Assembly: GCA_032622095.1 (NCBI GenBank)
Contig: CP136064.1
Location: forward strand, 252,776,484 to 252,840,483
Direction of reading: 5' to 3'
Length of the DNA stretch: 64,000 nt
DNA from: Siphonodentalium dalli
Lineage: Eukaryota; Mollusca; Scaphopoda; Gadilida; Siphonodentaliidae
Shown here: positions 1 to 59,439 of the stretch, in pieces
Position numbering within the stretch: the stretch's first letter is position 1
Layout of the letters: every line of letters starts with the position of its first letter
Made by a program: the position numbers and the translations under genes
The notes under the pieces: generated by a model
Told to the model about the DNA's origin: nothing
The model's database searches: none
Seen by the model: the letters and a program-made list of their open reading frames with translations, nothing else

Positions 1-74
1 GGGATTCGAACCCACGCCGGGAAGACCCGACTGCGACCTGAACGCAGCGCATTAGACCACTCGGCCATCCTGAC
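1..74 (-). tRNA. tRNA-Leu(CAG), cut by window edge
   Basis: The ten 3'-terminal bases lie outside the window. The D-stem carries the GGC to TGC change (GCATTAG on the + strand) also seen in the Leu genes of units 3, 18, 21, 24 and 26. Anticodon CAG is intact. Confidence 0.9.
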
Positions 75-343
75 TACAGAAAGACTGCAACAGTATCCTG
101 CTCAAAGTGAGACAATGGTATTGTGGATATATTTTAGTTCCCTTCTGGCTGTCGTTGCATTCTTAACGCACACATCCGATTGCTGATTTTTTGGTGGGTA
201 TATGATAAATGTACGTGATTCTATATAGTTATATTATGGCTATTAAGTTTTCATAAACAGGCCTTCTTGGACATAAAACATAATTTTATATTTTGTTTTC
301 AAATCAGCGAAAATGCGTTATGAAGAGCACTGTTTTCATTACT

Positions 344-416
344 GTCCCAGTAGCTCAGCGGATAGAGCGCTGGACTTCTAATCCAGAGGCCGTGGGTTCG
401 ATCCCCACCTGGGATG
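344..416 (+). tRNA. tRNA-Arg(TCT), unit 1 (reference copy)
   Basis: A 73-nt gene that decodes AGA. It folds as a 7-bp acceptor stem (G1:U72 wobble), a 4-bp D-stem with an 8-nt loop containing A20, the anticodon stem CTGGA/TCCAG around CTTCTAA, a 5-nt variable loop and the T-arm GTGGG/CCCAC with TTCGATC. The discriminator is G. A20 and C35 are the arginine identity bases known in most eukaryotes. The A box (TAGCTCAGCGG) and B box (GGTTCGATCC) fit the Pol III consensus. There is no intron, unlike many animal Arg(TCT) genes. TTTTT follows nine bases after the gene. CCA is not encoded. Confidence 0.97.
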
Positions 417-424
417 CACCGATA

Positions 425-429
425 TTTTT
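425..429 (+). terminator. Pol III T-run after tRNA-Arg
   Basis: TTTTT nine bases past the Arg discriminator; this spacer is repeated in the other units. Confidence 0.8.
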
Positions 430-516
430 AAATCTTGGAATCAAAATTCGGTCGTCGTGCCTTGCTGACCTGCAAAGCGATTGTTGACAAACTGTTGAAT
501 AACGAATATAATGTCT

Positions 517-523
517 TATAAAA
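517..523 (+). promoter_or_regulatory. TATA-like element upstream of tRNA-Gly(CCC)
   Basis: TATAAAA lies 18-24 bases before the Gly(CCC) gene. Upstream TATA-like motifs help position TFIIIB at some Pol III genes. The other four genes have no equally placed match. Its role is inferred. Confidence 0.4.
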
Positions 524-540
524 TGGTGTATTTATCGTAA

Positions 541-611
541 GCGCCGCTGGTGTAGTGGTATCATGCAAGATTCCCATTCTTGCGACCCGGGTTCGATTCC
601 CGGGCGGCGCA
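541..611 (+). tRNA. tRNA-Gly(CCC), unit 1 (reference copy)
   Basis: A 71-nt gene that decodes GGG. The acceptor is GCGCCGC/GCGGCGC with discriminator A. The anticodon arm is CAAGA-TTCCCAT-TCTTG and the T-arm CCGGG-TTCGATT-CCCGG. The sequence is close to identical to vertebrate Gly(CCC), which shows how conserved it is. The A box is TGGTGTAGTGG and the B box GGTTCGATTC. TTTTT follows at 621-625. The next four bases alternate between TATA-containing long and short forms among units. Confidence 0.97.
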
Positions 612-620
612 TATATCTAC

Positions 621-625
621 TTTTT
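621..625 (+). terminator. Pol III T-run after tRNA-Gly(CCC)
   Basis: TTTTT nine bases past the gene end, seven in units with the short TA form. Confidence 0.8.
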
Positions 626-654
626 CAGTTAAATATGACAGGCCATAATTTAGC

Positions 655-695
655 TGACATTTCTAATGGATTCAATTTTTAACAGAGGAATGTCA
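655..695 (+). other. Spacer inverted repeat between Gly(CCC) and iMet
   Basis: TGACATTTCT at 655-664 can pair with AGAGGAATGTCA ending at 695, giving a stem of about 10 bp with one G:U and a 21-nt loop. It recurs in the other units. No known RNA family is recognised. Confidence 0.4.
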
Positions 696-723
696 TTTTA
701 GAAAACCACCATTATTACCATGG

Positions 724-795
724 AGCAGAGTGGCGCAGTGGTAGCGTGCTGGGCCCATAACCCAGAGGTCCGAGGATCGAAACCTCGCTCTGCTA
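724..795 (+). tRNA. Initiator tRNA-Met(CAT), unit 1 (reference copy)
   Basis: A 72-nt gene. Initiator features are plain: A1:U72 at the top of the acceptor (AGCAGAG/CTCTGCT), three G:C pairs closing the anticodon loop (CTGGG-CCCATAA-CCCAG) and the T-loop ATCGAAA in place of TTCGAAT. Discriminator A. The T-stem is CGAGG/CCTCG. The A box is TGGCGCAGTGG and the B box GGATCGAAAC, as in other eukaryotic initiator genes. TTTT follows at 799-802. This is the reference for the shortened variants found in other units. Confidence 0.97.
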
Positions 796-798
796 ATA

Positions 799-802
799 TT
801 TT
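799..802 (+). terminator. Pol III T-run after tRNA-iMet
   Basis: TTTT four bases past the discriminator, the minimal Pol III stop. Confidence 0.75.
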
Positions 803-952
803 CGTCAAGGGGAGAGGAAGGAAGAATTATCACTTTGTTTGAAACTAAATACAGTAAGAATGTGCGTGTGTGTTTTAATGTTTATATTAAAATATGGTTT
901 TATTTATTATTGCTAGCAAATTAAAAAAAACGCTTCTTAAATGAATCGTGCA

Positions 953-983
953 CATGCATTTCAAGGGAGACTCGAAATGCATG
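953..983 (+). other. Perfect spacer inverted repeat upstream of Gly(GCC)
   Basis: CATGCATTTC (953-962) and GAAATGCATG (974-983) form a perfect 10-bp stem with an 11-nt loop. The pair recurs in the other units. In units 34, 36, 43 and 45 the left arm carries an extra CATG. In unit 4 the right arm has one change. Function unknown. Confidence 0.5.
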
Positions 984-1083
984 ACTTGTCCAGTCTATCG
1001 TTATAAAGTTCAAAGTCGCGTTGACTTCTCGACAACAAATGTGCTAGCTGCTCAAGAAGCTAAATTTGCGTTCATATCTCGCC

Positions 1084-1154
1084 GCATCGGTGGTTCAGTG
1101 GTAGAATGCTCGCCTGCCACGCGGGCGACCCGGGTTCGATTCCCGGCCGATGCA
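1084..1154 (+). tRNA. tRNA-Gly(GCC), unit 1 (reference copy)
   Basis: A 71-nt gene that decodes GGC and GGT. The acceptor is GCATCGG/CCGATGC with discriminator A. The anticodon arm is CTCGC-CTGCCAC-GCGGG and the T-arm CCGGG-TTCGATT-CCCGG. It differs from vertebrate Gly(GCC) by only a few bases. The A box is TGGTTCAGTGG and the B box GGTTCGATTC. Seven T residues at 1162-1168 end the transcript. It converges on the Leu gene across a 161-bp gap. Confidence 0.97.
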
Positions 1155-1161
1155 AAATAAG

Positions 1162-1168
1162 TTTTTTT
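1162..1168 (+). terminator. Pol III T-run after tRNA-Gly(GCC)
   Basis: Seven T residues, the longest terminator in the unit. Units 17, 19, 20, 22-26 and 37 have TTTTGTT instead, which keeps a four-T stop. Confidence 0.8.
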
Positions 1169-1304
1169 CACTGATTTTGTTTGTGGATATCCACCTCATT
1201 TTGGACTATGCAGTTTAATTGGGAACTTGAGAAAAACAAATTTCATTGGCACATAAATTTGTTTAAAGAAAACGGACGGACTTGCGATTCGCATTTCATC
1301 GAGC

Positions 1305-1308
1305 AAAA
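1305..1308 (-). terminator. Pol III T-run after tRNA-Leu
   Basis: AAAA on the + strand is TTTT in the Leu transcript, about seven bases past its 3' end. Confidence 0.7.
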
Positions 1309-1315
1309 TTACTGT

Positions 1316-1399
1316 TGTCCGAAGTGGGATTCGAAACCACGCCGGGAAGACCCGACTGCGACCTGAACGCAGCGCCTTAGACCACTCGGCCATCCTGAC
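1316..1399 (-). tRNA. tRNA-Leu(CAG), unit 1
   Basis: An 84-nt class II gene that decodes CTG and is the only gene on the minus strand. The consensus fold is acceptor GTCAGGA/TTCTGAC, discriminator A, 3-bp D-stem, anticodon arm CTGCG-TTCAGGT-CGCAG, a long variable arm CGGG-TCTT-CCCG and T-arm GTGGG-TTCGAAT-CCCAC. Copies fully matching this include 26459, 29107 and 30430. This unit-1 copy has two changes: TTCGGAC in the acceptor (A4:G69 mismatch) and GTGGT in the T-stem. It could still be transcribed, but its function is less certain. Confidence 0.9.
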
Positions 1400-1668
1400 T
1401 ACAGAAAGACTGCAACAGTATCCTGCTCAAAGTGAGACAATGGTATTGTGGATATATTTTAGTTCCCTTCTGGCTGTCGTTGCATTCTTAACGCACACAT
1501 CCGATTGCTGATTTTTTGGTGGGTATATGATAAATGTACGTGATTCTATATAGTTATATTATGGCTATTAAGTTTTCATAAACAGGCCTTCTTGGACATA
1601 AAACATAATTTTATATTTTGTTTTCAAATCAGCGAAAATGCGTTATGAAGAGCACTGTTTTCATTACT

Positions 1669-1741
1669 GTCCCAGTAGCTCAGCGGATAGAGCGCTGGAC
1701 TTCTAATCCAGAGGCCGTGGGTTCGATCCCCACCTGGGATG
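1669..1741 (+). tRNA. tRNA-Arg(TCT)
   Basis: Unit 2; as the reference copy at 344. Confidence 0.95.
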
Positions 1742-1865
1742 CACAGATATTTTTAAATCTTGGAATCAAAATTCGGTCGTCGTGCCTTGCTGACCTGCAA
1801 AGCGATTGTTGACAAACTGTTGAATAACGAATATAATGTCTTATAAAATGGTGTATTTATCGTAA

Positions 1866-1936
1866 GCGCCGCTGGTGTAGTGGTATCATGCAAGATTCCC
1901 ATTCTTGCGACCCGGGTTCGATTCCCGGGCGGCGCA
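1866..1936 (+). tRNA. tRNA-Gly(CCC)
   Basis: Unit 2; as the reference copy at 541. Confidence 0.95.
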
Positions 1937-2048
1937 TATATCTACTTTTTCAGTTAAATATGACAGGCCATAATTTAGCTGACATTTCTAATGGATTCAA
2001 TTTTTAACAGAGGAATGTCATTTTAGAAAACCACCATTATTACCATGG

Positions 2049-2118
2049 AGCAGAGTGGCGCAGTGGTAGCGTGCAGGGCCCATAACCCGAGTCCGAGGAT
2101 CGAAACCTCGCTCTGCTA
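2049..2118 (+). tRNA. tRNA-iMet(CAT), 70-nt short variant
   Basis: Unit 2; first of ten copies of a short class. The anticodon stem reads CAGGG/CCCGA, so only the three G:C pairs remain, and the variable loop has lost two bases. Anticodon, acceptor and T-arm are intact. Possibly a pseudogene. Confidence 0.75.
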
Positions 2119-2406
2119 ATATTTTCGTCAAGGGGAGAGGAAGGAAGAATTATCACTTTGTTTGAAAGTAAATACAGTAAGAATGTGCGTGTGTGTTTTA
2201 ATGTTTATATTAAAATATGGTTTTATTTATTATTGCTAGCAAATTAAAATAAACGCTTCTTAAATGAATCGTGCACATGCATTTCAAGGGAGACTCGAAA
2301 TGCATGACTTGTCCAGTCTATCGTTATAAAGTTCAAAGTCGCGTTGACTTCTCGACAACAAATGTGCTAGCTGCTCAAGAAGCTAAATTTGCGTTCATAT
2401 CTCGCC

Positions 2407-2477
2407 GCATCGGTGGTTCAGTGGTAGAATGCTCGCCTGCCACGCGGGCGACCCGGGTTCGATTCCCGGCCGATGCA
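2407..2477 (+). tRNA. tRNA-Gly(GCC)
   Basis: Unit 2; as the reference copy at 1084. Confidence 0.95.
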
Positions 2478-2638
2478 AAATAAGTTTTTTTCACTGATTT
2501 TGTTTGTGGATATCCACCTCATTTTGGACTATGCAGTTTAATTGGGAACTTGAGAAAAACAAATTTTATTGGCACATAAATTTGTTTAAAGAAAACGGAC
2601 GGACTTGCGATTCGCATTTCATCGAGCAAAATTACTGT

Positions 2639-2722
2639 TGTCCGAAGTGGGATTCGAACCCACGCCGGGAAGACCCGACTGCGACCTGAACGCAGCCCCT
2701 TAGACCACTCGGCCATCCTGAC
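2639..2722 (-). tRNA. tRNA-Leu(CAG), D-stem variant
   Basis: Unit 2; acceptor A4:G69 mismatch, and D-stem GGC changed to GGG, so the first D-stem pair is lost. Confidence 0.85.
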
Positions 2723-2991
2723 TACAGAAAGACTGCAACAGTATCCTGCTCAAAGTGAGACAATGGTATTGTGGATATATTTTAGTTCCCTTCTGGCTGT
2801 CGTTGCATTCTTAACGCACACATCCGATTGCTGATTTTTTGGTGGGTATATGATAAATGTACGTGATTCTATATAGTTATATTATGGCTATTAAGTTTTC
2901 ATAAACAGGCCTTCTTGGACATAAAACATAATTTTATATTTTGTTTTCAAATCAGCGAAAATGCGTTATGAAGAGCACTGTTTTCATTACT

Positions 2992-3064
2992 GTCCCAGTA
3001 GCTCAGCGGATAGAGCGCTGGACTTCTAATCCAGAGGCCGTGGGTTCGATCCCCACCTGGGATG
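2992..3064 (+). tRNA. tRNA-Arg(TCT)
   Basis: Unit 3; as the reference copy at 344. Confidence 0.95.
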
Positions 3065-3188
3065 CACAGATATTTTTAAATCTTGGAATCAAAATTCGGT
3101 CGTCGTGCCTTGCTGACCTGCAAAGCGATTGTTGACAAACTGTTGAATAACGAATATAATGTCTTATAAAATGGTGTATTTATCGTAA

Positions 3189-3259
3189 GCGCCGCTGGTG
3201 TAGTGGTATCATGCAAGATTCCCATTCTTGCGACCCGGGTTCGATTCCCGGGCGGCGCA
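3189..3259 (+). tRNA. tRNA-Gly(CCC)
   Basis: Unit 3; as the reference copy, with the short TA form downstream. Confidence 0.95.
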
Positions 3260-3369
3260 TATCTACTTTTTCAGTTAAATATGACAGGCCATAATTTAGC
3301 TGACATTTCTAATGGATTCAATTTTTAACAGAGGAATGTCATTTTAGAAAACCACCATTATTACCATGG

Positions 3370-3433
3370 AGCAGAGTGGCGCAGTGGTAGCGTGCTGGGC
3401 CCATAACCCGAGGATCGAAACCTCGCTCTGCTA
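3370..3433 (+). pseudogene. tRNA-iMet(CAT) pseudogene, 8-nt deletion
   Basis: Unit 3; only 64 nt. Eight bases (AGAGGTCC) between the CCC of the anticodon stem and the T-stem are gone, so the end of the anticodon stem, the variable loop and the start of the T-stem cannot form together. The B box and terminator remain, so it may be transcribed but should not fold. Confidence 0.85.
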
Positions 3434-3721
3434 ATATTTTCGTCAAGGGGAGAGGAAGGAAGAATTATCACTTTGTTTGAAACTAAATACAGTAAGAATG
3501 TGCGTGTGTGTTTTAATGTTTATATTAAAATATGGTTTTATTTATTATTGCTAGCAAATTAAAAAAAACGCTTCTTAAATGAATCGTGCACATGCATTTC
3601 AAGGGAGACTCGAAATGCATGACTTGTCCAGTCTATCGTTATAAAGTTCAAAGTCGCGTTGACTTCTCGACAACAAATGTGCTAGCTGCTCAAGAAGCTA
3701 AATTTGCGTTCATATCTCGCC

Positions 3722-3792
3722 GCATCGGTGGTTCAGTGGTAGAATGCTCGCCTGCCACGCGGGCGACCCGGGTTCGATTCCCGGCCGATGCA
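3722..3792 (+). tRNA. tRNA-Gly(GCC)
   Basis: Unit 3; as the reference copy. Confidence 0.95.
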
Positions 3793-3953
3793 AAATAAGT
3801 TTTTTTCACTGATTTTGTTTGTGGATATCCACCTCATTTTGGACTATGCAGTTTAATTGGGAACTTGAGAAAAACAAATTTCATTGGCACATAAATTTGT
3901 TTAAAGAAAACGGACGGACTTGCGATTCGCATTTCATCGAGCAAAATTACTGT

Positions 3954-4037
3954 TGTCAGAAGTGGGATTCGAACCCACGCCGGGAAGACCCGACTGCGAC
4001 CTGAACGCAGCGCATTAGACCACTCGGCCATCCTGAC
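3954..4037 (-). tRNA. tRNA-Leu(CAG), D-stem variant
   Basis: Unit 3; normal acceptor and variable arm, D-stem GGC changed to TGC, which loses one pair. Confidence 0.87.
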
Positions 4038-4306
4038 TACAGAAAGACTGCAACAGTATCCTGCTCAAAGTGAGACAATGGTATTGTGGATATATTTTAG
4101 TTCCCTTCTGGCTGTCGTTGCATTCTTAACGCACACATCCGATTGCTGATTTTTTGGTGGGTATATGATAAATGTACGTGATTCTATATAGTTATATTAT
4201 GGCTATTAAGTTTTCATAAACAGGCCTTCTTGGACATAAAACATAATTTTATATTTTGTTTTCAAATCAGCGAAAATGCGTTATGAAGAGCACTGTTTTC
4301 ATTACT

Positions 4307-4379
4307 GTCCCAGTAGCTCAGCGGATAGAGCGCTGGACTTCTAATCCAGAGGCCGTGGGTTCGATCCCCACCTGGGATG
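4307..4379 (+). tRNA. tRNA-Arg(TCT)
   Basis: Unit 4; as the reference copy. Confidence 0.95.
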
Positions 4380-4503
4380 CACCGATATTTTTAAATCTTG
4401 GAATCAAAATTCGGTCGTCGTGCCTTGCTGACCTGCAAAGCGATTGTTGACAAACTGTTGAATAACGAATATAATGTCTTATAAAATGGTGTATTTATCG
4501 TAA

Positions 4504-4574
4504 GCGCCGCTGGTGTAGTGGTATCATGCAAGATTCCCATTCTTGCGACCCGGGTTCGATTCCCGGGCGGCGCA
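4504..4574 (+). tRNA. tRNA-Gly(CCC)
   Basis: Unit 4; as the reference copy. Confidence 0.95.
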
Positions 4575-4686
4575 TATATCTACTTTTTCAGTTAAATATG
4601 ACAGGCCATAATTTAGCTGACATTTCTAATGGATTCAATTTTTAACAGAGGAATGTCATTTTAGAAAACCACCATTATTACCATGG

Positions 4687-4758
4687 AGCAGAGTGGCGCA
4701 GTGGTAGCGTGCTGGGCCCATAACCCAGAGGTCCGAGGATCGAAACCTCGCTCTGCTA
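4687..4758 (+). tRNA. tRNA-iMet(CAT)
   Basis: Unit 4; full-length 72-nt form. Confidence 0.95.
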
Positions 4759-5046
4759 ATATTTTCGTCAAGGGGAGAGGAAGGAAGAATTATCACTTTG
4801 TTTGAAACTAAATACAGTAAGAATGTGCGTGTGTGTTTTAATGTTTATATTAAAATATGGTTTTATTTATTATTGCTAGCAAATTAAAAAAAACGCTTCT
4901 TAAATGAATCGTGCACATGCATTTCAAGGGAGACTCGAATTGCATGACTTGTCCAGTCTATCGTTATAAAGTTCAAAGTCGCGTTGACTTCTCGACAACA
5001 AATGTGCTAGCTGCTCAAGAAGCTAAATTTGCGTTCATATCTCGCC

Positions 5047-5117
5047 GCATCGGTGGTTCAGTGGTAGAATGCTCGCCTGCCACGCGGGCGACCCGGGTTC
5101 GATTCCCGGCCGATGCA
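5047..5117 (+). tRNA. tRNA-Gly(GCC)
   Basis: Unit 4; as the reference copy. The upstream spacer hairpin has one mismatch here. Confidence 0.95.
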
Positions 5118-5278
5118 AAATAAGTTTTTTTCACTGATTTTGTTTGTGGATATCCACCTCATTTTGGACTATGCAGTTTAATTGGGAACTTGAGAAAAAC
5201 AAATTTCATTGGCACATAAATTTGTTTAAAGAAAACGGACGGACTTGCGATTCGCATTTCATCGAGCAAAATTACTGT

Positions 5279-5362
5279 TGTCCGAAGTGGGATTCGAAAC
5301 CACGCCGGGAAGACCCGACTGCGACCTGAACGCAGCGCCTTAGACCACTCGGCCATCCTGAC
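5279..5362 (-). tRNA. tRNA-Leu(CAG), acceptor and T-stem variant
   Basis: Unit 4; same two changes as the unit 1 copy (A4:G69, T-stem GTGGT). Confidence 0.83.
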
Positions 5363-5631
5363 TACAGAAAGACTGCAACAGTATCCTGCTCAAAGTGAGA
5401 CAATGGTATTGTGGATATATTTTAGTTCCCTTCTGGCTGTCGTTGCATTCTTAACGCACACATCCGATTGCTGATTTTTTGGTGGGTATATGATAAATGT
5501 ACGTGATTCTATATAGTTATATTATGGCTATTAAGTTTTCATAAACAGGCCTTCTTGGACATAAAACATAATTTTATATTTTGTTTTCAAATCAGCGAAA
5601 ATGCGTTATGAAGAGCACTGTTTTCATTACT

Positions 5632-5704
5632 GTCCCAGTAGCTCAGCGGATAGAGCGCTGGACTTCTAATCCAGAGGCCGTGGGTTCGATCCCCACCTGG
5701 GATG
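5632..5704 (+). tRNA. tRNA-Arg(TCT)
   Basis: Unit 5; as the reference copy. Confidence 0.95.
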
Positions 5705-5828
5705 CACAGATATTTTTAAATCTTGGAATCAAAATTCGGTCGTCGTGCCTTGCTGACCTGCAAAGCGATTGTTGACAAACTGTTGAATAACGAATATAAT
5801 GTCTTATAAAATGGTGTATTTATCGTAA

Positions 5829-5899
5829 GCGCCGCTGGTGTAGTGGTATCATGCAAGATTCCCATTCTTGCGACCCGGGTTCGATTCCCGGGCGGCGCA
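5829..5899 (+). tRNA. tRNA-Gly(CCC)
   Basis: Unit 5; as the reference copy. Confidence 0.95.
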
Positions 5900-6011
5900 T
5901 ATATCTACTTTTTCAGTTAAATATGACAGGCCATAATTTAGCTGACATTTCTAATGGATTCAATTTTTAACAGAGGAATGTCATTTTAGAAAACCACCAT
6001 TATTACCATGG

Positions 6012-6081
6012 AGCAGAGTGGCGCAGTGGTAGCGTGCAGGGCCCATAACCCGAGTCCGAGGATCGAAACCTCGCTCTGCTA
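6012..6081 (+). tRNA. tRNA-iMet(CAT), 70-nt short variant
   Basis: Unit 5; short class as at 2049. Confidence 0.75.
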
Positions 6082-6369
6082 ATATTTTCGTCAAGGGGAG
6101 AGGAAGGAAGAATTATCACTTTGTTTGAAAGTAAATACAGTAAGAATGTGCGTGTGTGTTTTAATGTTTATATTAAAATATGGTTTTATTTATTATTGCT
6201 AGCAAATTAAAATAAACGCTTCTTAAATGAATCGTGCACATGCATTTCAAGGGAGACTCGAAATGCATGACTTGTCCAGTCTATCGTTATAAAGTTCAAA
6301 GTCGCGTTGACTTCTCGACAACAAATGTGCTAGCTGCTCAAGAAGCTAAATTTGCGTTCATATCTCGCC

Positions 6370-6440
6370 GCATCGGTGGTTCAGTGGTAGAATGCTCGCC
6401 TGCCACGCGGGCGACCCGGGTTCGATTCCCGGCCGATGCA
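6370..6440 (+). tRNA. tRNA-Gly(GCC)
   Basis: Unit 5; as the reference copy. Confidence 0.95.
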
Positions 6441-6601
6441 AAATAAGTTTTTTTCACTGATTTTGTTTGTGGATATCCACCTCATTTTGGACTATGCAGT
6501 TTAATTGGGAACTTGAGAAAAACAAATTTCATTGGCACATAAATTTGTTTAAAGAAAACGGACGGACTTGCGATTCGCATTTCATCGAGCAAAATTACTG
6601 T

Positions 6602-6685
6602 TGTCCGAAGTGGGATTCGAACCCACGCCGGGAAGACCCGACTGCGACCTGAACGCAGCCCCTTAGACCACTCGGCCATCCTGAC
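6602..6685 (-). tRNA. tRNA-Leu(CAG), D-stem variant
   Basis: Unit 5; same pair of changes as the unit 2 copy. Confidence 0.85.
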
Positions 6686-6954
6686 TACAGAAAGACTGCA
6701 ACAGTATCCTGCTCAAAGTGAGACAATGGTATTGTGGATATATTTTAGTTCCCTTCTGGCTGTCGTTGCATTCTTAACGCACACATCCGATTGCTGATTT
6801 TTTGGTGGGTATATGATAAATGTACGTGATTCTATATAGTTATATTATGGCTATTAAGTTTTCATAAACAGGCCTTCTTGGACATAAAACATAATTTTAT
6901 ATTTTGTTTTCAAATCAGCGAAAATGCGTTATGAAGAGCACTGTTTTCATTACT

Positions 6955-44749: not shown

Positions 44750-44811
44750 GCATCGGTGGTTCAGTGGTAGAATGCACGCGGGCGACCCGGGTTCGATTCC
44801 CGGCCGATGCA
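44750..44811 (+). pseudogene. tRNA-Gly(GCC) pseudogene lacking its anticodon
   Basis: Unit 34; 62 nt. Nine bases (TCGCCTGCC) covering the 5' anticodon stem and the anticodon itself are deleted. The flanking GC-rich sequence may have promoted slippage. D-arm, T-arm, acceptor and terminator are intact, so a transcript without an anticodon could still be made. Confidence 0.92.
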
Positions 44812-45522: not shown

Positions 45523-45593
45523 GCGCCGCTGGTGTAGTGGTATCATGCAAGATTTCCATTCTTGCGACCCGGGTTCGATTCCCGGGCGGCGCA
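45523..45593 (+). tRNA. tRNA-Gly(TCC), anticodon-shifted copy
   Basis: Unit 35; the Gly(CCC) gene with C34 changed to T. The loop reads TTTCCAT, so the anticodon is TCC, which decodes GGA. Amino-acid identity should be unchanged. Confidence 0.9.
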
Positions 45594-46648: not shown

Positions 46649-46722
46649 GTCCCAGTAGCTCAGCGGATAGAGCGCTGGACTTCTAACTCCAGAGGCCGTG
46701 GGTTCGATCCCCACCTGGGATG
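46649..46722 (+). tRNA. tRNA-Arg(TCT), anticodon-loop insertion
   Basis: Unit 36; 74 nt. An extra C gives CTTCTAAC, an 8-nt anticodon loop. Decoding is doubtful. Extra bases 3' of the anticodon are typical of +1 frameshift suppressor tRNAs, but decay is more likely. Confidence 0.8.
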
Positions 46723-46846
46723 CACAGATATTTTTAAATCTTGGAATCAAAATTCGGTCGTCGTGCCTTGCTGACCTGCAAAGCGATTGTTGACAAACTG
46801 TTGAATAACGAATATAATGTCTTATAAAATGGTGTATTTATCGTAA

Positions 46847-48940: not shown

Positions 48941-49024
48941 TGTCATAAGTGGGATTCGAACCCACGCCGGGAAGACCCGACTGCGACATGAACGCAGCGC
49001 CTTAGACCACTCGGCCATCCTGAC
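48941..49024 (-). tRNA. tRNA-Leu body with CAT (Met) anticodon
   Basis: Unit 37; the anticodon arm reads CTGCG-TTCATGT-CGCAG, so G36 is T and CAG has become CAT. The long variable arm (CGGG/CCCG), D-arm, T-arm and discriminator A73 of tRNA-Leu are intact. The acceptor has TTATGAC for TTCTGAC, giving a G5:A68 mismatch. The base next to the anticodon stays G37. If charged by LeuRS it would read ATG as leucine. The acceptor mismatch also allows plain decay. The 5' flank has an extra TA. Confidence 0.88.
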
Positions 49025-49295: not shown

Positions 49296-49368
49296 GTCCC
49301 GGTAGCTCAGCGGATAGAGCGCTGGACTTCTAATCCAGAGGCCGTGGGTTCGATCCCCACCTGGGATG
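49296..49368 (+). tRNA. tRNA-Arg(TCT), acceptor wobble
   Basis: Unit 38; A6 is G, giving G:U with U67. Confidence 0.93.
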
Positions 49369-49492
49369 CACAGATATTTTTAAATCTTGGAATCAAAATT
49401 CGGTCGTCGTGCCTTGCTGACCTGCAAAGCGATTGTTGACAAACTGTTGAATAACGAATATAATGTCTTATAAAATGGTGTATTTATCGTAA

Positions 49493-49563
49493 GCGCCGCT
49501 GGTGTAGTGGTATCATGCAAGATTCCCATTCTTGCGACCCGGGTTCGATTCCCGGGCGGCGCA
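49493..49563 (+). tRNA. tRNA-Gly(CCC)
   Basis: Unit 38; last intact gene before the deletion that removed iMet and Gly(GCC) from this unit. Confidence 0.95.
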
Positions 49564-49712
49564 TATCTACTTTTTCAGTTAAATATGACAGGCCATAATT
49601 TAGCTGACATTTCTAATGGATTCAATTTTTAACAGAGGAATGTCATTTTAGAAATTTGTTTAAAGAAAACGGACGGACTTGCGATTCGCATTTCATCGAG
49701 CAAAATTACTGT

Positions 49713-49796
49713 TGTCAGAAGTGGGATTCGAACCCACGCCTGGAAGACCCGACTGCGACCTGATCGCAGCGCCTTAGACCACTCGGCCATCCTGAC
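49713..49796 (-). tRNA. tRNA-Leu(CAG), T32 to A
   Basis: Unit 38; CCAG variable arm, and loop ATCAGGT for TTCAGGT. A32 could pair with U38 and tighten the anticodon loop. Confidence 0.85.
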
Positions 49797-50040
49797 TACA
49801 GAAAGACTGCAACAGTATCCTGCTCAAAGTGAGACAATGGTATTGTGGATATATTTTAGTTCCCTTCTGGCTGTCGTTGCATTCTTAACGCACACGTCCG
49901 ATTGCTGATTTTTTGACAGGCCATAATTTAGCTGACATTTCTAATGGATTCAATTTTTAACAGAGGAATGTCATTTTAGAAATTTGTTTAAAGAAAACGG
50001 ACGGACTTGCGATTCGCATTTCATCGAGCAAAATTACTGT

Positions 50041-50124
50041 TGTCAGAAGTGGGATTCGAACCCACGCCTGGAAGACCCGACTGCGACCTGATCGCAGCGC
50101 CTTAGACCACTCGGCCATCCTGAC
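50041..50124 (-). tRNA. tRNA-Leu(CAG), duplicate of 49713 copy
   Basis: Mini-unit 38b; identical changes to the copy 328 bp upstream, so it was duplicated after those mutations arose. Confidence 0.85.
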
Positions 50125-50393
50125 TACAGAAAGACTGCAACAGTATCCTGCTCAAAGTGAGACAATGGTATTGTGGATATATTTTAGTTCCCTTCTGGCT
50201 GTCGTTGCATTCTTAACGCACACATCCGATTGCTGATTTTTTGGTGGGTATATGATAAATGTACGTGATTCTATATAGTTATATTATGGCTATTAAGTTT
50301 TCATAAACAGGCCTTCTTGGACATAAAACATAATTTTATATTTTGTTTTCAAATCAGCGAAAATGCGTTATGAAGAGCACTGTTTTCATTACT

Positions 50394-52524: not shown

Positions 52525-52685
52525 AAATAAGTTTTTTTCACTGATTTTGTTTGTGGATATCCACCTCATTTTGGACTATGCAGTTTAATTGGGAACTTGA
52601 GAAAAACAAATTTCATTGGCACATAAATTTGTTTAAAGAAAACGGACGGACTTGCGATTCGCATTTCATCGAGCAAAATTACTGT

Positions 52686-52769
52686 TGTCAGAAGTGGGTT
52701 TCGAACCCACTCCGGGAAGACCCGACTGCGACCTGAACGCAGCGCCTTAGACCACTCGGCCATCCTGAC
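52686..52769 (-). tRNA. tRNA-Leu(CAG), T-loop variant
   Basis: Unit 40; T-loop TTCGAAA for TTCGAAT, and the last variable-arm base is A. Stems intact. Shared with unit 42. Confidence 0.9.
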
Positions 52770-53038
52770 TACAGAAAGACTGCAACAGTATCCTGCTCAA
52801 AGTGAGACAATGGTATTGTGGATATATTTTAGTTCCCTTCTGGCTGTCGTTGCATTCTTAACGCACACATCCGATTGCTGATTTTTTGGTGGGTATATGA
52901 TAAATGTACGTGATTCTATATAGTTATATTATGGCTATTAAGTTTTCATAAACAGGCCTTCTTGGACATAAAACATAATTTTATATTTTGTTTTCAAATC
53001 AGCGAAAATGCGTTATGAAGAGCACTGTTTTAATTACT

Positions 53039-53111
53039 GTCCCAGTAGCTCAGCGGATAGAGCGCTGGACTTCTAATCCAGAGGCCGTGGGTTCGATCCC
53101 CACCTGGGATG
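53039..53111 (+). tRNA. tRNA-Arg(TCT)
   Basis: Unit 41; gene as reference, GGCCGTCG spacer. Confidence 0.95.
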
Positions 53112-53235
53112 CACAGATATTTTTAAATCTTGGAATCAAAATTCGGCCGTCGTGCCTTGCTGACCTGCAAAGCGATTGTTGACAAACTGTTGAATAACGA
53201 ATATAATGTCTTATAAAATGGTGTATTTATCGTAA

Positions 53236-53306
53236 GCGCCGCTGGTGTAGTGGTATCATGCAAGATTCCCATTCTTGCGACCCGGGTTCGATTCCCGGGC
53301 GGCGCA
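53236..53306 (+). tRNA. tRNA-Gly(CCC)
   Basis: Unit 41; as the reference copy. Confidence 0.95.
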
Positions 53307-53416
53307 TATCTACTTTTTCAGTTAAATATGACAGGCCATAATTTAGCTGACATTTCTAATGGATTCAATTTTTAACAGAGGAATGTCATTTTAGAAAACC
53401 ACCATTATTACCATGG

Positions 53417-53488
53417 AGCAGAGTGGCGCAGTGGTAGCGTGCTGGGCCCATAACCCAGAGGTCAGAGGATCGAAACCTCGCTCTGCTA
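53417..53488 (+). tRNA. tRNA-iMet(CAT), T-stem variant
   Basis: Unit 41; AGAGG T-stem as in unit 39. Confidence 0.87.
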
Positions 53489-53776
53489 ATATTTTCGTCA
53501 AGGGGAGAGGAAGGAAGAATTATCACTTTGTTTGAAAGTAAATACAGTAAGAATGTGCGTGTGTGTTTTAATGTTTATATTAAAATATGGTTTTATTTAT
53601 TATTGCTAGCAAATTAAAAAAAACGCTTCTTAAATGAATCGTGCACATGCATTTCAAGGGAGACTCGAAATGCATGACTTGTCCAGTCTATCGTTATAAA
53701 GTTCAAAGTCGCGTTGACTTCTCGACAACAAATGTGCTAGCTGCTCAAGAAGCTAAATTTGCGTTCATATCTCGCC

Positions 53777-53847
53777 GCATCGGTGGTTCAGTGGTAGAAT
53801 GCTCGCCTGCCACGCGGGCGACCCGGGTTCGATTCCCGGCCGATGCA
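53777..53847 (+). tRNA. tRNA-Gly(GCC)
   Basis: Unit 41; as the reference copy. Confidence 0.95.
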
Positions 53848-54007
53848 AAATAAGTTTTTTTCACTGATTTTGTTTGTTATATCCACCTCATTTTGGACTA
53901 TGCAGTTTAATTGGGAACTTGAGAAAAACAAATTTCATTGGCACATAAATTTGTTTAAAGAAAACGGACGGACTTGCGATTCGCATTTCATCGAGCAAAA
54001 TTACTGT

Positions 54008-54091
54008 TGTCAGAAGTGGGATTCGAACCCACGCCTGGAAGACCCGACTGCGACCTGAACGCAGCGCCTTAGACCACTCGGCCATCCTGAC
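54008..54091 (-). tRNA. tRNA-Leu(CAG), variable-arm variant
   Basis: Unit 41; CCAG variable arm. Confidence 0.87.
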
Positions 54092-54360
54092 TACAGAAAG
54101 ACTGCAACAGTATCCTGCTCAAAGTGAGACAATGGTATTGTGGATATATTTTAGTTCCCTTCTGGCTGTCGTTGCATTCTTAACGCACACATCCGATTGC
54201 TGATTTTTTGGTGGGTATATGATAAATGTACGTGATTCTATATAGTTATATTATGGCTATTAAGTTTTCATAAACAGGCCTTCTTGGACATAAAACATAA
54301 TTTTATATTTTGTTTTCAAATCAGCGAAAATGCGTTATGAAGAGCACTGTTTTCATTACT

Positions 54361-54433
54361 GTCCCAGTAGCTCAGCGGATAGAGCGCTGGACTTCTAATC
54401 CAGAGGCCGTGGGTTCGATCCCCACCTGGGATG
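54361..54433 (+). tRNA. tRNA-Arg(TCT)
   Basis: Unit 42; as the reference copy. Confidence 0.95.
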
Positions 54434-54557
54434 CACAGATATTTTTAAATCTTGGAATCAAAATTCGGTCGTCGTGCCTTGCTGACCTGCAAAGCGATTG
54501 TTGACAAACTGTTGAATAACGAATATAATGTCTTATAAAATGGTGTATTTATCGTAA

Positions 54558-54628
54558 GCGCCGCTGGTGTAGTGGTATCATGCAAGATTCCCATTCTTGC
54601 GACCCGGGTTCGATTCCCGGGCGGCGCA
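54558..54628 (+). tRNA. tRNA-Gly(CCC)
   Basis: Unit 42; as the reference copy. Confidence 0.95.
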
Positions 54629-54738
54629 TATCTACTTTTTCAGTTAAATATGACAAGCCATAATTTAGCTGACATTTCTAATGGATTCAATTTTTAACAG
54701 AGGAATGTCATTTTAGAAAACCACCATTATTACCATGG

Positions 54739-54810
54739 AGCAGAGTGGCGCAGTGGTAGCGTGCTGGGCCCATAACCCAGAGGTCCGAGGATCGAAACCT
54801 CGCTCTGCTA
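54739..54810 (+). tRNA. tRNA-iMet(CAT)
   Basis: Unit 42; full-length form. Confidence 0.95.
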
Positions 54811-55098
54811 ATATTTTCGTCAAGGGGAGAGGAAGGAAGAATTATCACTTTGTTTGAAAGTAAATACAGTAAGAATGTGCGTGTGTGTTTTAATGTTTAT
54901 ATTAAAATATGGTTTTATTTATTATTGCTAGCAAATTAAAAAAAACGCTTCTTAAATGAATCGTGCACATGCATTTCAAGGGAGACTCGAAATGCATGAC
55001 TTGTCCAGTCTATCGTTATAAAGTTCAAAGTCGCGTTGACTTCTCGACAACAAATGTGCTAGCTGCTCAAGAAGCTAAATTTGCGTTCATATCTCGCC

Positions 55099-55169
55099 GC
55101 ATCGGTGGTTCGGTGGTAGAATGCTCGCCTGCCACGCGGGCGACCCGGGTTCGATTCCCGGCCGATGCA
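55099..55169 (+). tRNA. tRNA-Gly(GCC), A14 to G
   Basis: Unit 42; GGTGG D-loop as in unit 40. Confidence 0.87.
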
Positions 55170-55330
55170 AAATAAGTTTTTTTCACTGATTTTGTTTGTG
55201 GATATCCACCTCATTTTGGACTATGCAGTTTAATTGGGAACTTGAGAAAAACAAATTTCATTGGCACATAAATTTGTTTAAAGAAAACGGACGGACTTGC
55301 GATTCGCATTTCATCGAGCAAAATTACTGT

Positions 55331-55414
55331 TGTCAGAAGTGGGTTTCGAACCCACTCCGGGAAGACCCGACTGCGACCTGAACGCAGCGCCTTAGACCAC
55401 TCGGCCATCCTGAC
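55331..55414 (-). tRNA. tRNA-Leu(CAG), T-loop variant
   Basis: Unit 42; same two changes as unit 40. Confidence 0.9.
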
Positions 55415-55683
55415 TACAGAAAGACTGCAACAGTATCCTGCTCAAAGTGAGACAATGGTATTGTGGATATATTTTAGTTCCCTTCTGGCTGTCGTTGCAT
55501 TCTTAACGCACACATCCGATTGCTGATTTTTTGGTGGGTATATGATAAATGTACGTGATTCTATATAGTTATATTATGGCTATTAAGTTTTCATAAACAG
55601 GCCTTCTTGGACATAAAACATAATTTTATATTTTGTTTTCAAATCAGCGAAAATGCGTTATGAAGAGCACTGTTTTAATTACT

Positions 55684-55756
55684 GTCCCAGTAGCTCAGCG
55701 GATAGAGCGCTGGACTTCTAATCCAGAGGCCGTGGGTTCGATCCCCACCTGGGATG
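55684..55756 (+). tRNA. tRNA-Arg(TCT)
   Basis: Unit 43; as the reference copy. Confidence 0.95.
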
Positions 55757-55880
55757 CACAGATATTTTTAAATCTTGGAATCAAAATTCGGTCGTCGTGC
55801 CTTGCTGACCTGCAAAGCGATTGTTGACAAACTGTTGAATAACGAATATAATGTCTTATAAAATGGTGTATTTATCGTAA

Positions 55881-55951
55881 GCGCCGCTGGTGTAGTGGTA
55901 TCATGCAAGATTCCCATTCTTGCGACCCGGGTTCGATTCCCGGGCGGCGCA
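55881..55951 (+). tRNA. tRNA-Gly(CCC)
   Basis: Unit 43; as the reference copy. Confidence 0.95.
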
Positions 55952-56061
55952 TATCTACTTTTTCAGTTAAATATGACAAGCCATAATTTAGCTGACATTT
56001 CTAATGGATTCAATTTTTAACAGAGGAATGTCATTTTAGAAAACCACCATTATTACCATGG

Positions 56062-56133
56062 AGCAGAGTGGCGCAGTGGTAGCGTGCTGGGCCCATAACC
56101 CAGAGGTCCGAGGATCGAAACCTCGCTCTGCTA
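56062..56133 (+). tRNA. tRNA-iMet(CAT)
   Basis: Unit 43; full-length form. Confidence 0.95.
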
Positions 56134-56425
56134 ATATTTTCGTCAAGGGGAGAGGAAGGAAGAATTATCACTTTGTTTGAAAGTAAATACAGTAAGAATG
56201 TGCGTGTGTGTTTTAATGTTTATATTAAAATAAGGTTTTATTTATTATTGCTAGCAAATTAAAAAAAACGCTTCTTAAATGAATCGTGCACATGCATGCA
56301 TTTCAAGGGAGACTCGAAATGCATGACTTGTCCAGTCTATCGTTATAAAGTTCAAAGTCGCGTTGACTTCTCGACAACAAATGTGCTAGCTGCTCAAGAA
56401 GCTAAATTTGCGTTCATATCTCGCC

Positions 56426-56496
56426 GCATCGGTGGTTCAGTGGTAGAATGCTCGCCTGCCACGCGGGCGACCCGGGTTCCATTCCCGGCCGATGCA
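56426..56496 (+). tRNA. tRNA-Gly(GCC), B-box broken
   Basis: Unit 43; T-loop TTCCATT for TTCGATT. G57 is C, which hits the invariant core of the B box (GGTTCGATTC), so transcription should be reduced. Shared with unit 44. Confidence 0.8.
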
Positions 56497-56650
56497 AAAT
56501 AAATTTTTTCACTGATTTTGTTTGTGGATATCCACCTCATTTTGGACTATGCAGTTTAATTGGGAACTTGAGAAAAACAAATTTCATTGGCACATAAATT
56601 TGTTTAAAGAAAACGGACGGACTTCGCATTTCATCGAGCAAAATTACTGT

Positions 56651-56734
56651 TGTCAGAAGTGGGATTCGAACCCACGCCGGGAAGACCCGACTGCGACCTG
56701 AACGCAGCGCCTTAGACCACTCGGCCATCCTGAC
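56651..56734 (-). tRNA. tRNA-Leu(CAG), consensus form
   Basis: Unit 43; all stems paired. The same 6-bp spacer loss as unit 36 lies downstream. Confidence 0.96.
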
Positions 56735-57007
56735 TACAGAAAGACTGCAACAGTATCTTGCTCAAAGTGAGACAATGGTATTGTGGATATATTTTAGTTC
56801 CCTTCTGGCTGTCGTTGCATTCTTAACGCACACATCCGATTGCTGATTTTTTGGTGGGTATATATATGATAAATGTACGTGATTCTATATAGTTATATTA
56901 TGGCTATTAAGTTTTCATAAACAGGCCTTCTTGGACATAAAACATAATTTTATATTTTGTTTTCAAATCAGCGAAAATGCGTTATGAAGAGCACTGTTTT
57001 CATTACT

Positions 57008-57080
57008 GTCCCGGTAGCTCAGAGGATAGAGCGCTGGACTTCTAATCCAGAGGCCGTGGGTTCGATCCCCACCTGGGATA
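57008..57080 (+). tRNA. tRNA-Arg(TCT), three changes
   Basis: Unit 44; A6 is G (wobble), a D-loop C is A (AGAGG), and discriminator G73 is A. Confidence 0.85.
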
Positions 57081-57204
57081 CACAGATATTTTTAAATCTT
57101 GGAATCAAAATTCGGTCGTCGTGCCTTGCTGACCTGCAAAGCGATTGTTGACAAACTGTTGAATAACGAATATAATGTCTTATAAAATGGTGTATTTATC
57201 GTAA

Positions 57205-57275
57205 GCGCCGCTGGTGTAGTGGTATCATGCAAGATTCCCATTCTTGCGACCCGGGTTCGATTCCCGGGCGGCGCA
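57205..57275 (+). tRNA. tRNA-Gly(CCC)
   Basis: Unit 44; as the reference copy. Confidence 0.95.
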
Positions 57276-57385
57276 TATCTACTTTTTCAGTTAAATATGA
57301 CAGGCCATAATTTTGCTGACATTTCTAATGGATTCAATTTTTAACAGAGGAATGTCATTTTAGAAAACCACCATTATTACCATGG

Positions 57386-57457
57386 AGCAGAGTGGCGCAG
57401 TGGTAGCGTGCTGGGCCCATAACCCAGAGGTCCGAGGATCGAAACCTCGCTCTGCTA
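57386..57457 (+). tRNA. tRNA-iMet(CAT)
   Basis: Unit 44; full-length form. Confidence 0.95.
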
Positions 57458-57744
57458 ATATTTTCGTCAAGGGGAGAGGAAGGAAGAATTATCACTTTGT
57501 TTGAAAGTAAATACAGTAAGAATGTGCGTGTGTGTTTTAATGTTTATATTAAGATATGGTTTTATTTATTATTGCTAGCAAATTAAAAAAACGCTTCTTA
57601 AATGAATCGTGCACATGCATTTCAAGGGAGACTCGAAATGCATGACTTGTCCAGTCTATCGTTATAAAGTTCAAAGTCGCGTTGACTTCTCGACAACAAA
57701 TGTGCTAGCTGCTCAAGAAGCTAAATTTGCGTTCATATCTCGCC

Positions 57745-57815
57745 GCATCGGTGGTTCAGTGATAGAATGCTCGCCTGCCACGCGGGCGACCCGGGTTCCA
57801 TTCCCGGCCGATGCA
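57745..57815 (+). tRNA. tRNA-Gly(GCC), A and B boxes altered
   Basis: Unit 44; G57 to C as in unit 43, and D-loop AGTGATA for AGTGGTA. Both promoter boxes are hit. Possibly silent. Confidence 0.75.
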
Positions 57816-57976
57816 AAATAAGTTTTTTTCACTGATTTTGTTTGTGGATATCCACCTCATTTTGGACTATGCAGTTTAATTGGGAACTTGAGAAAAACAA
57901 ATTTCATTGGCACATAAATTTGTTTAAATAAAACGGACGGACTTGCGATTCGCATTTCATCGAGCAAAATTACTGT

Positions 57977-58060
57977 TGTCAGAAGTGGGATTCGAACCCA
58001 CGCCGGGAAGACCCGACTGCGACCTGAACGCAGCGCCTTAGACCACTCGGCCATCCTGAC
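57977..58060 (-). tRNA. tRNA-Leu(CAG), consensus form
   Basis: Unit 44; all stems paired. Confidence 0.96.
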
Positions 58061-58329
58061 TACAGAAAGACTGCAACAGTATCCTGCTCAAAGTGAGACA
58101 ATGGTATTGTGGATATATTTTAGTTCCCTTCTGGCTGTCGTTGCATTCTTAACGCACACATCCGATTGCTGATTTTTTGGTGGGTATATGATAAATGTAC
58201 GTGATTCTATATAGTTATATTATGGCTATTAAGTTTTCATAAACAGGCCTTCTTGGACATAACACATAATTTTATATTTTGTTTTCAAATCAGCGAAAAT
58301 GCGTTATGAAGAGCACTGTTTTCATTACT

Positions 58330-58402
58330 GTCCCAGTAGCTCAGCGGATAGAGCGCTGGACTTCTAATCCAGAGGCCGTGGGTTCGATCCCCACCTGGGA
58401 TG
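58330..58402 (+). tRNA. tRNA-Arg(TCT)
   Basis: Unit 45; as the reference copy, though other genes of this edge unit are decayed. Confidence 0.95.
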
Positions 58403-58526
58403 CACAGATATTTTTAAATCTTGGAATCAAAATTCGGTCGTCGTGCCTTGCTGACCTGCAAAGCGATTGTTGACAAACTGTTGAATAACGAATATAATGT
58501 CTTATAAAATGGTGTATTTCTCGTAA

Positions 58527-58597
58527 GCGCCGCTGGTGTAGTGGTATCATGCAAGATTCCCATTCTTGCGACCCGGGTTCGATTCCCGGGCGGCGCA
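58527..58597 (+). tRNA. tRNA-Gly(CCC)
   Basis: Unit 45; as the reference copy. Confidence 0.95.
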
Positions 58598-58707
58598 TAT
58601 CTACTTTTTCAGTTAAATATGACAGGCCATAATTTAGCTGACATTTCTAATGGATTCAATTTTTAACAAAGGAATGTCATTTTAGAAAACCACCATTATT
58701 ACCATGG

Positions 58708-58779
58708 AGCAGAGTGGCGCAGTGGTAGCGTGCTTGGCCCATAACCCAGAGGTCCGAGGATCGAAACCTCGCTCTGCTA
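58708..58779 (+). tRNA. tRNA-iMet(CAT), anticodon-stem mismatch
   Basis: Unit 45; stem CTTGG for CTGGG, one of the three initiator G:C pairs lost. Confidence 0.82.
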
Positions 58780-59071
58780 ATATTTTCGTCAAGGGGAGAG
58801 GAAGGAAGAATTATCACTTTGTTTGAAAGTAAATACAGTAAGAATGTGCGTGTGTGTTTTAATGTTTATATTAAAATATGGTTTTATTTATTATTGCTAG
58901 CAAATTAAAAAAAACGCTTCTTAAATGAATCGTGCACATGCATGCATTTCAAGGGAGACTCGAAATGCATGACTTGTCCAGTCAATCGTTATAAAGTTCA
59001 AAGTCGCGTTGACTTCTCGACAACAAATGTGCTAGCTGCTCAAGAAGCTTAATTTGCGTTCATATCTCGCC

Positions 59072-59142
59072 GCATCGGTGGTTCAGTGGTAGAATGCCAG
59101 CCTGCCACGCGGGCGACCCGGGTTCGATTCCCGGCCGATTCA
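59072..59142 (+). tRNA. tRNA-Gly(GCC), degenerate
   Basis: Unit 45; CAGC replaces TCGC in the anticodon arm 5' side (GCCAGCCTGCC), and the 3' acceptor has CCGATTC for CCGATGC. Probable pseudogene. The anticodon GCC is still legible. Confidence 0.7.
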
Positions 59143-59303
59143 AATTAAGTTTTTTTCACTGATTTTGTTTGTGGATATCCACCTCATTTTGGACTATGCA
59201 GTTTAATTGGGAACTTGAGAAAGAAAAATTTCATTGGCAGATAAATTTGTTTAAAGAAAACGGACGGACTTGCGATTCGCATTTCATCGAGCAAAATTAC
59301 TGT

Positions 59304-59388
59304 TGTCAGAAGTGGGATTCGAACCCACGCCGGGAAGACCCGACTGCGACCTGAACGAAGACCCGAGCGACCACTCGGCCATCCTGAC
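59304..59388 (-). pseudogene. tRNA-Leu(CAG) pseudogene at array end
   Basis: Unit 45; 85 nt. The acceptor, T-arm and anticodon match the consensus. The stretch covering the 3' anticodon-stem partner and the D-arm reads GAAGACCCGAGCGACC (+ strand 59357-59372) and no longer pairs. It is the last gene of the array. Confidence 0.85.
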
Positions 59389-59439
59389 TACAGAAAGACT
59401 GCAACAGTATCCTGCTCAAAGTGAGACAATGGTATTGTG

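What the first reader, a model, noticed from the sequence alone, without database searches (positions are those of the whole stretch)
1..59439. Giant tandem array: 225 tRNA loci in under 60 kb
At least 45 head-to-tail copies of a five-gene tRNA unit give about 3.8 tRNA genes per kb. Tandem multi-tRNA units are known, for example the 3.18-kb unit of Xenopus laevis and arrays in Entamoeba, but I do not recognise this gene set and order. The array runs off the left edge, so the true copy number is higher.
Basis: partly seen in the sequence, partly recalled or inferred. Interest (0 to 1): 0.85.

Follow-up and report, generated by a model that had tools for sequence, protein, structure and literature searches.

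The report
Giant five-gene tRNA tandem array
An animal chromosome carries a half-megabase block of near-identical repeats of five transfer-RNA genes, and other chromosomes of the same genome carry similar blocks with other transfer RNAs; such arrays are known from a few organisms, but this one is large enough to record how the genes mutate copy by copy.

Summary
The window holds 45 units of about 1,323 bp with Arg-TCT, Gly-CCC, initiator Met-CAT, Gly-GCC and, reversed, Leu-CAG: 225 tRNA loci, 11 of them damaged initiator genes. The window lies in a 2.23-Gb genome in 9 contigs. The array runs on leftwards to about 252.312 Mb of contig C4, about 524 kb in all, broken by insertions. Other tandem tRNA arrays lie on C2, C3, C5 and C8. 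Initiator Met matches 731 genome places and Arg-TCT 502. Best reading: Pol III tRNA gene arrays, most genes intact with terminators, homogenised by unequal exchange like rDNA. Unexpectedly, tRNA genes and their 20-bp flanks vary about twice as much between copies as the spacers. This fits transcription-associated mutation with weak selection on single copies; a small sample of the C2 array did not show it. Comparable arrays are published for Entamoeba, Phytophthora, Hydractinia and human 1q23.3. So: a new member of a known kind, with an unusual mutation record. Transcription, true copy number and species could not be tested.

The parts
1..59439 (+). right end of a tandem array of a 1,323-bp five-tRNA unit (45 Arg-anchored units plus a partial one at the left edge)
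344..417 (+). tRNA-Arg-TCT of the first complete unit
   Evidence: ARAGORN
541..611 (+). tRNA-Gly-CCC of the first complete unit
   Evidence: ARAGORN
724..795 (+). tRNA-Met-CAT of the first complete unit (called initiator from its sequence, by eye and recall)
   Evidence: ARAGORN; sequence
1084..1154 (+). tRNA-Gly-GCC of the first complete unit
   Evidence: ARAGORN
1316..1399 (-). tRNA-Leu-CAG of the first complete unit
   Evidence: ARAGORN
2049..2118 (+). one of 10 copies of a shared damaged initiator-Met allele (2-nt deletion and linked changes; units 2,5,6,9,11,14,16,27,28,31)
3370..3433 (+). initiator Met with an 8-nt deletion (unit 3)
44750..44811 (+). shortened Gly-GCC (unit 34)
45523..45593 (+). 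Gly tRNA with anticodon changed CCC to TCC
46649..46723 (+). Arg tRNA with one extra base in the anticodon loop
48941..49024 (-). Leu-type tRNA whose anticodon reads CAT
49296..50393 (+). rearranged unit (38): no iMet or Gly-GCC, Leu gene duplicated in a 328-bp direct repeat (49,586-50,243)
59440..60389 (+). remnant that ends the array; looks like a non-LTR reverse transcriptase by eye (zf-RVT match E 0.05, below cut-off); parts occur at many other genome places
61471..62256 (+). tyrosine-recombinase-like ORF (PF00589, E 1e-4, below cut-off), part of a repeat present on other contigs
63401..64000 (+). reverse-transcriptase ORF (PF00078, E 5e-16), runs off the window

Best explanation
This is the right-hand tenth of a roughly 524-kb array of Pol III tRNA genes in an animal genome that keeps many of its tRNA genes in giant tandem arrays. 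SHOWN: five different tRNA genes per 1.3-kb unit; near-identical units; a T-run after nearly every gene; tandem tRNA arrays on four other contigs, two of which (C2, C8) were read and have other gene sets. INFERRED: each gene is transcribed on its own from internal A and B boxes and supplies bulk tRNA, including initiator Met. INFERRED from variant sharing, edge decay and shortened units: unequal exchange and local conversion expand, contract and homogenise the units, as in rDNA. INFERRED: with hundreds of copies a single copy is nearly free of selection, so germline transcription leaves more mutations in genes and their flanks than in spacers, broken alleles spread to neighbours, and selection acts only on the pool.
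For: Units: 43 of 45 differ from the consensus at 2-9 sites (the two others are the rearranged unit 38 and edge unit 45). Pairwise identity, gaps counted, is 97.5-100% among 43 units, U38 and U45 left out. Terminators: 211 of 212 ARAGORN genes have TTTT within 30 nt downstream, against 33% of spacer 30-mers. Neighbours share variants: mean differences at lag 3 are 5.61 against 7.31 in shuffles (lowest of 500: 6.20), and gone by lag 10. The edges decay: the right-most unit has 18 mismatches and the left-most Met gene found is degenerate. Broken alleles spread: one damaged Met allele in 10 of 45 units; an 8-nt duplication in Arg, read in one copy, at the position that ARAGORN calls Leu-TAG ten times in the left part. 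Genes are kept across arrays while spacers are not: C4 against C2 aligns over Met and Gly-GCC (92-96 bp, 94-96%) and C4 against C8 over Arg (73-76 bp, 97-99%); the other hits join different tRNA genes. Variation over 264 kb, four genes tested: genes 89 distinct substitutions against 43.7 expected at the distal-spacer rate, flanks 39 against 19.0, Monte Carlo p below 1e-4 for genes; window alone 42 against 14.0; left part alone 54 against 32.7, p 0.005. Non-CpG sites: C/G p 0.036, A/T p 0.003.
Against: No expression data. Three C2 units showed 3 of 253 gene sites and 22 of 773 spacer sites variable, so no gene excess there; three C8 units showed 0 of 363 and 1 of 1,153; a second C2 sample (L039) gave 75 of 253 and 165 of 779 but its last piece is partial and badly aligned, so I do not use it. 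Within the array the genes are not visibly protected, which by itself would also fit a decaying satellite; only the identity between arrays and the kept terminators argue for function. Tests with the near spacer counted as spacer are weaker in the left part alone (C/G 1.56-fold p 0.034, A/T 1.27-fold p 0.45). One of the five genes could not be tested fully outside the window. Demand is unproven: codon use was not measured.
Confidence: 0.72

Rival explanations
1. Selectively neutral tRNA satellite: unequal exchange blew up an ordinary tRNA cluster; most copies are silent (as the Arabidopsis Ser/Tyr cluster is in most tissues, PMC12308677, abstract and passages) and dosage is irrelevant.
For: Damaged alleles spread freely; genes vary more than spacers; large insertions are tolerated; the gene set includes isotypes not obviously in high demand (no codon test made).
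Against: 138 of 225 loci equal the consensus; a T-run is kept after 211 of 212 ARAGORN genes; genes are near-identical between arrays with unrelated spacers; the flanks share the gene excess, as expected of transcribed rather than silent genes.
Confidence: 0.2
2. Chromatin boundary or architectural element, like the human 1q23.3 tDNA tandem repeat with CTCF.
For: tRNA genes act as barriers elsewhere (PMC4041453, passages).
Against: No boundary motif was searched and no chromatin data are held; arrays with different spacers share only tRNA genes. A side role is not excluded.
Confidence: 0.06
3. Assembly artefact.
For: Near-identical repeats are hard to assemble, and an N run, either an assembly gap or a withheld stretch, stands beside the C8 array.
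Against: Units carry distinct private variants in ordered neighbour groups, two insertions have clean target junctions, and both array edges were seen. Exact copy number may still be wrong.
Confidence: 0.02

Closest known systems
Hydractinia tRNA tandem arrays (PMC11067881, passages)
   Same: An animal; [quoted passage not shown]
   Different: Unit gene sets were not seen (supplements not read); the genome here is 2.23 Gb, larger (Hydractinia size recalled); five different genes per unit here.
Entamoeba tRNA gene arrays (PMC2652664, abstract and passages)
   Same: Several distinct array units with up to 5 tRNA genes each; almost all tRNA genes arrayed; concerted evolution proposed.
   Different: Protist; arrays exceed 10% of the E. 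histolytica genome; short tandem repeats between genes in E. histolytica and E. dispar. Here TRF (periods to 500, score 50) found within the array only the 328-bp duplication.
Human 1q23.3 tDNA variable tandem repeat (PMC4041453, abstract and passages)
   Same: Five tRNA genes per unit, tandem, near-identical; genes kept between species while spacers are not.
   Different: 7.3-kb GC-rich unit, 9-43 units, CTCF site; here 1.3 kb, 41% GC, at least 198 Arg places on C4 (94 plus 104, in stretches that do not overlap).
Phytophthora infestans tRNA arrays (PMC9584435, passages)
   Same: Thousands of tRNA genes, about two-thirds of the families on a single chromosome, mono- to trimeric units, variants often grouped near one edge of an array.
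   Different: Oomycete; units of one to three genes.
Xenopus laevis 3.18-kb tRNA unit
   Same: Multi-isotype tandem unit in an animal.
   Different: Other gene set and unit length (recalled).

Membership tests
multi-isotype tandem tRNA gene array | head-to-tail near-identical units | tested here: met
multi-isotype tandem tRNA gene array | several different intact tRNA genes per unit | tested here: met
multi-isotype tandem tRNA gene array | more than one array type in the genome | tested here: met
   C2, read: Met, Gly-GCC and an intron-bearing tRNA taken by eye as Ile-TAT; C8, read: Trp, Asp, Arg, Lys, Val; C3 and C5 known only from evenly spaced Asn and Phe matches
multi-isotype tandem tRNA gene array | most or all tRNA genes of the genome arrayed | tested here: inconclusive
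multi-isotype tandem tRNA gene array | transcription of the units | not testable with these tools
   no RNA data; indirect only
human-type tDNA repeat with insulator role | CTCF site in the unit | not tested
   no motif scan made
Dada transposons (for the two inserts in the Met gene) | 6-7 bp target duplication and no terminal inverted repeats (PMC3706591, abstract and passages) | tested here: not met
   both inserts have terminal inverted repeats and, by eye, 2-bp duplications

The most novel reading that the evidence does not exclude
The array is a natural mutation-accumulation record of Pol III genes: because single copies are nearly free of selection, mutation tied to germline transcription is visible inside the tRNA genes themselves (genes and flanks both about 2-fold over spacers, G-to-T the most frequent change on the coding strand), whereas in humans gene bodies are depleted of variation and only the flanks are raised (PMC8113476, one passage).
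Probability: 0.45. Interest if true: 0.68.

Novelty: new member of a known kind. Interest (0 to 1): 0.5.

Why it matters
Animal tRNA genes are usually pictured as dispersed or loosely clustered. Here an animal genome keeps tRNA genes for at least eleven amino acids in tandem arrays on at least five contigs, some of them rDNA-like in size, with over 700 initiator-Met matches. That makes dosage, concerted evolution and the cost of broken copies measurable in one place. It also gives hundreds of paired gene and spacer stretches in which the mutation rate of transcribed tRNA genes can be read with little interference from selection.

Tried and rejected
Target-specific transposons: two TIR elements (35.7 and 14.7 kb) sit at the same point of the initiator-Met anticodon loop. 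The end of the 14.7-kb element matches 1,031 places in the genome; the 100 listed are 97 scattered along C1 and 3 on C2, so tRNA specificity is rejected for it; the 35.7-kb one was not tested. Dada membership rejected. ARAGORN's ten Leu-TAG calls: the copy read is an Arg with an 8-nt duplication, not a new isotype; the others were judged by position. Base composition and CpG as the whole cause of the gene excess: rejected by base-matched and non-CpG tests. Species name: not found; a chiton was considered from memory because of genome size and chromosome number and is not claimed. Rfam genome-wide count: 112,462 first-look candidates of which 63 were scored, not usable as a tRNA number. U2 snRNA array test: not completed.
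Full report
Observation. The window is G000:C4:252,776,484-252,840,483 of a 2.227-Gb genome in 9 contigs. From 1 to 59,439 it consists of a tandem array. Arg-TCT anchors give 45 units, and the unit consensus is 1,323 bp. Gene starts in the unit are Arg-TCT at 1, Gly-CCC at 198, initiator Met at 379, Gly-GCC at 739 and Leu-CAG, reversed, at 971. Projection of the five genes gives 225 loci, of which ARAGORN finds 212. Chance is not in question: Rfam gives 62 tRNA matches in the last 21 kb alone, 60 of them at 50-72 bits.

The array beyond the window. I read 190 kb to the left and 10 kb to the right. The joined 264 kb hold 104 Arg places and 553 ARAGORN genes. Some short stretches there are withheld and read N, so these are lower counts. 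The left part is less regular than the window. It has regular units, shortened units of 770, 1,098 and 1,291 bp, a 1,651-bp form, runs of a 999-bp unit without the Arg gene, and insertions of 35.7, 7.4, 14.7 and 14.7 kb besides smaller ones. A pattern search puts Arg-TCT at 502 places genome-wide (415 forward, 87 reverse). Of the 100 places listed, 94 lie on C4 between 252,312,951 and 252,551,141 and 6 on C8. The left-most unit found begins with a degenerate initiator Met at about C4:252,312,015, with no unit sequence in the 2 kb before it. The array is thus about 524 kb. The stretch from 252.315 to 252.586 Mb was seen only through the listed Arg places and samples (L041, L044).

Other arrays. 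On C2 (217.64-217.81 Mb and from 221.65 Mb) a unit of about 1,028 bp holds initiator Met, Gly-GCC and an intron-bearing tRNA that Rfam scores at 56 bits and I read by eye as Ile-TAT. On C8 from about 185.995 Mb a unit of 1,505-1,516 bp holds Trp, Asp, Arg-TCT and, reversed, Lys-CTT and Val-TAC. A Trp pattern finds 213 places; the 100 listed are all on C8 in clusters near 186.0-186.2, 188.2 and 189.0 Mb. A Phe core finds 34 places, all on C5 within 15 kb, mostly 321-322 bp apart. An Asn core finds 620 places; of the 100 listed, 98 lie on C3 at 135.40-135.65 Mb and one each on C6 and C7. Initiator Met matches 731 places; the 100 listed are on C2, and others are in the window.

How it evolves. 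Units differ little (43 of 45 units 2-9 mismatches from consensus). Units that share variants lie near each other: mean differences are 6.30, 6.07 and 5.61 at lags 1-3 against about 7.3 in 500 shuffles, and the effect is gone by lag 10. Broken alleles have been copied to neighbours, such as the damaged Met allele in 10 of 45 units, and edge units are more divergent. This is what unequal exchange and local conversion give; the mechanism itself is inferred. Between C4 and C2, and between C4 and C8, only tRNA genes align (with a few bases around them), at 94-99% for the same isotype, while the spacers have no similarity at E 1e-3.

Which part mutates. In the window alignment, leaving out unit 38, 57 variant events fall in 372 gene positions and 53 in 951 spacer positions (p 2e-7). 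Over 264 kb, leaving out the one gene that is partly withheld, genes show 89 distinct substitutions where the distal-spacer rate predicts 43.7, and the 20-bp flanks 39 where it predicts 19.0. The excess holds for singletons (54 against 24.4) and shared variants (35 against 19.3), and without the right-edge units (77 against 40.3). It holds at non-CpG sites. On the coding strand G-to-T is the commonest change (20 of 89). In the window the gene excess is 3.0-fold, in the left part alone 1.65-fold, and with near spacer counted as spacer the left-part test is weaker. Three C2 units show the opposite tendency, 3 of 253 against 22 of 773 sites, and three C8 units are uninformative. In humans, gene bodies are depleted of variation and flanks raised by transcription-associated mutagenesis (PMC8113476, one passage, citing Thornlow 2018, which is not held). 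The simplest reading of body and flank both raised is germline transcription plus very weak selection on a single copy. Gene conversion among related tRNA genes is a further possible source that I did not test.

Function. Nearly every gene keeps a T-run (211 of 212 ARAGORN genes), and 138 of 225 loci equal the consensus, so most copies look usable. Expression was not testable.

Known relatives. Entamoeba (PMC2652664), Hydractinia (PMC11067881), human 1q23.3 (PMC4041453) and Phytophthora (PMC9584435) have arrays of the same kind; abstracts or passages were seen, not whole texts. A 2010 survey reported over 17,000 tDNAs in Nematostella and about 20,000 in zebrafish, with 65% clustered in zebrafish (PMC2888827, passages). 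Six paper searches aimed at tRNA arrays listed no report that I recognised as this gene set and order; the library holds open-licence papers only and most hits were seen as listings. Four further searches served other questions. Novelty: new member of a known kind; the five-gene unit, the size and the mutation pattern are the new parts.

Noticed in passing
C4:252,593,877-252,629,532 (L036-L032) and C4:252,744,540-252,759,276 (L021-L019): Two elements with different terminal inverted repeats (35.7 and 14.7 kb) sit at the same point in the anticodon loop of an initiator-Met gene, each with a 2-bp duplication. The 14.7-kb element's end has 1,031 matches in the genome; the 35.7-kb one has an open 813-aa ORF with zinc fingers.
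   Followed up: partly
C4:190.26-190.40 Mb: Four high-scoring tRNA matches about 45 kb apart, which suggests a very long repeat unit.
   Followed up: no
window 48941-49024 and 45523-45593: Anticodon-shift copies: a Leu-type tRNA reading CAT and a Gly reading TCC.
   Followed up: no
window 62841-63130: Short tandem repeats of 40 and 46 bp in the right flank.
   Followed up: no
L042 (C8), left of the array: A satellite-like repeat of about 45 bp (by eye) and an N run, an assembly gap or a withheld stretch, border the C8 array, so that array may be incomplete.
   Followed up: no
L043 around 2016-2060: The left-most initiator Met of the C4 array is degenerate, as expected at an array edge.
   Followed up: partly
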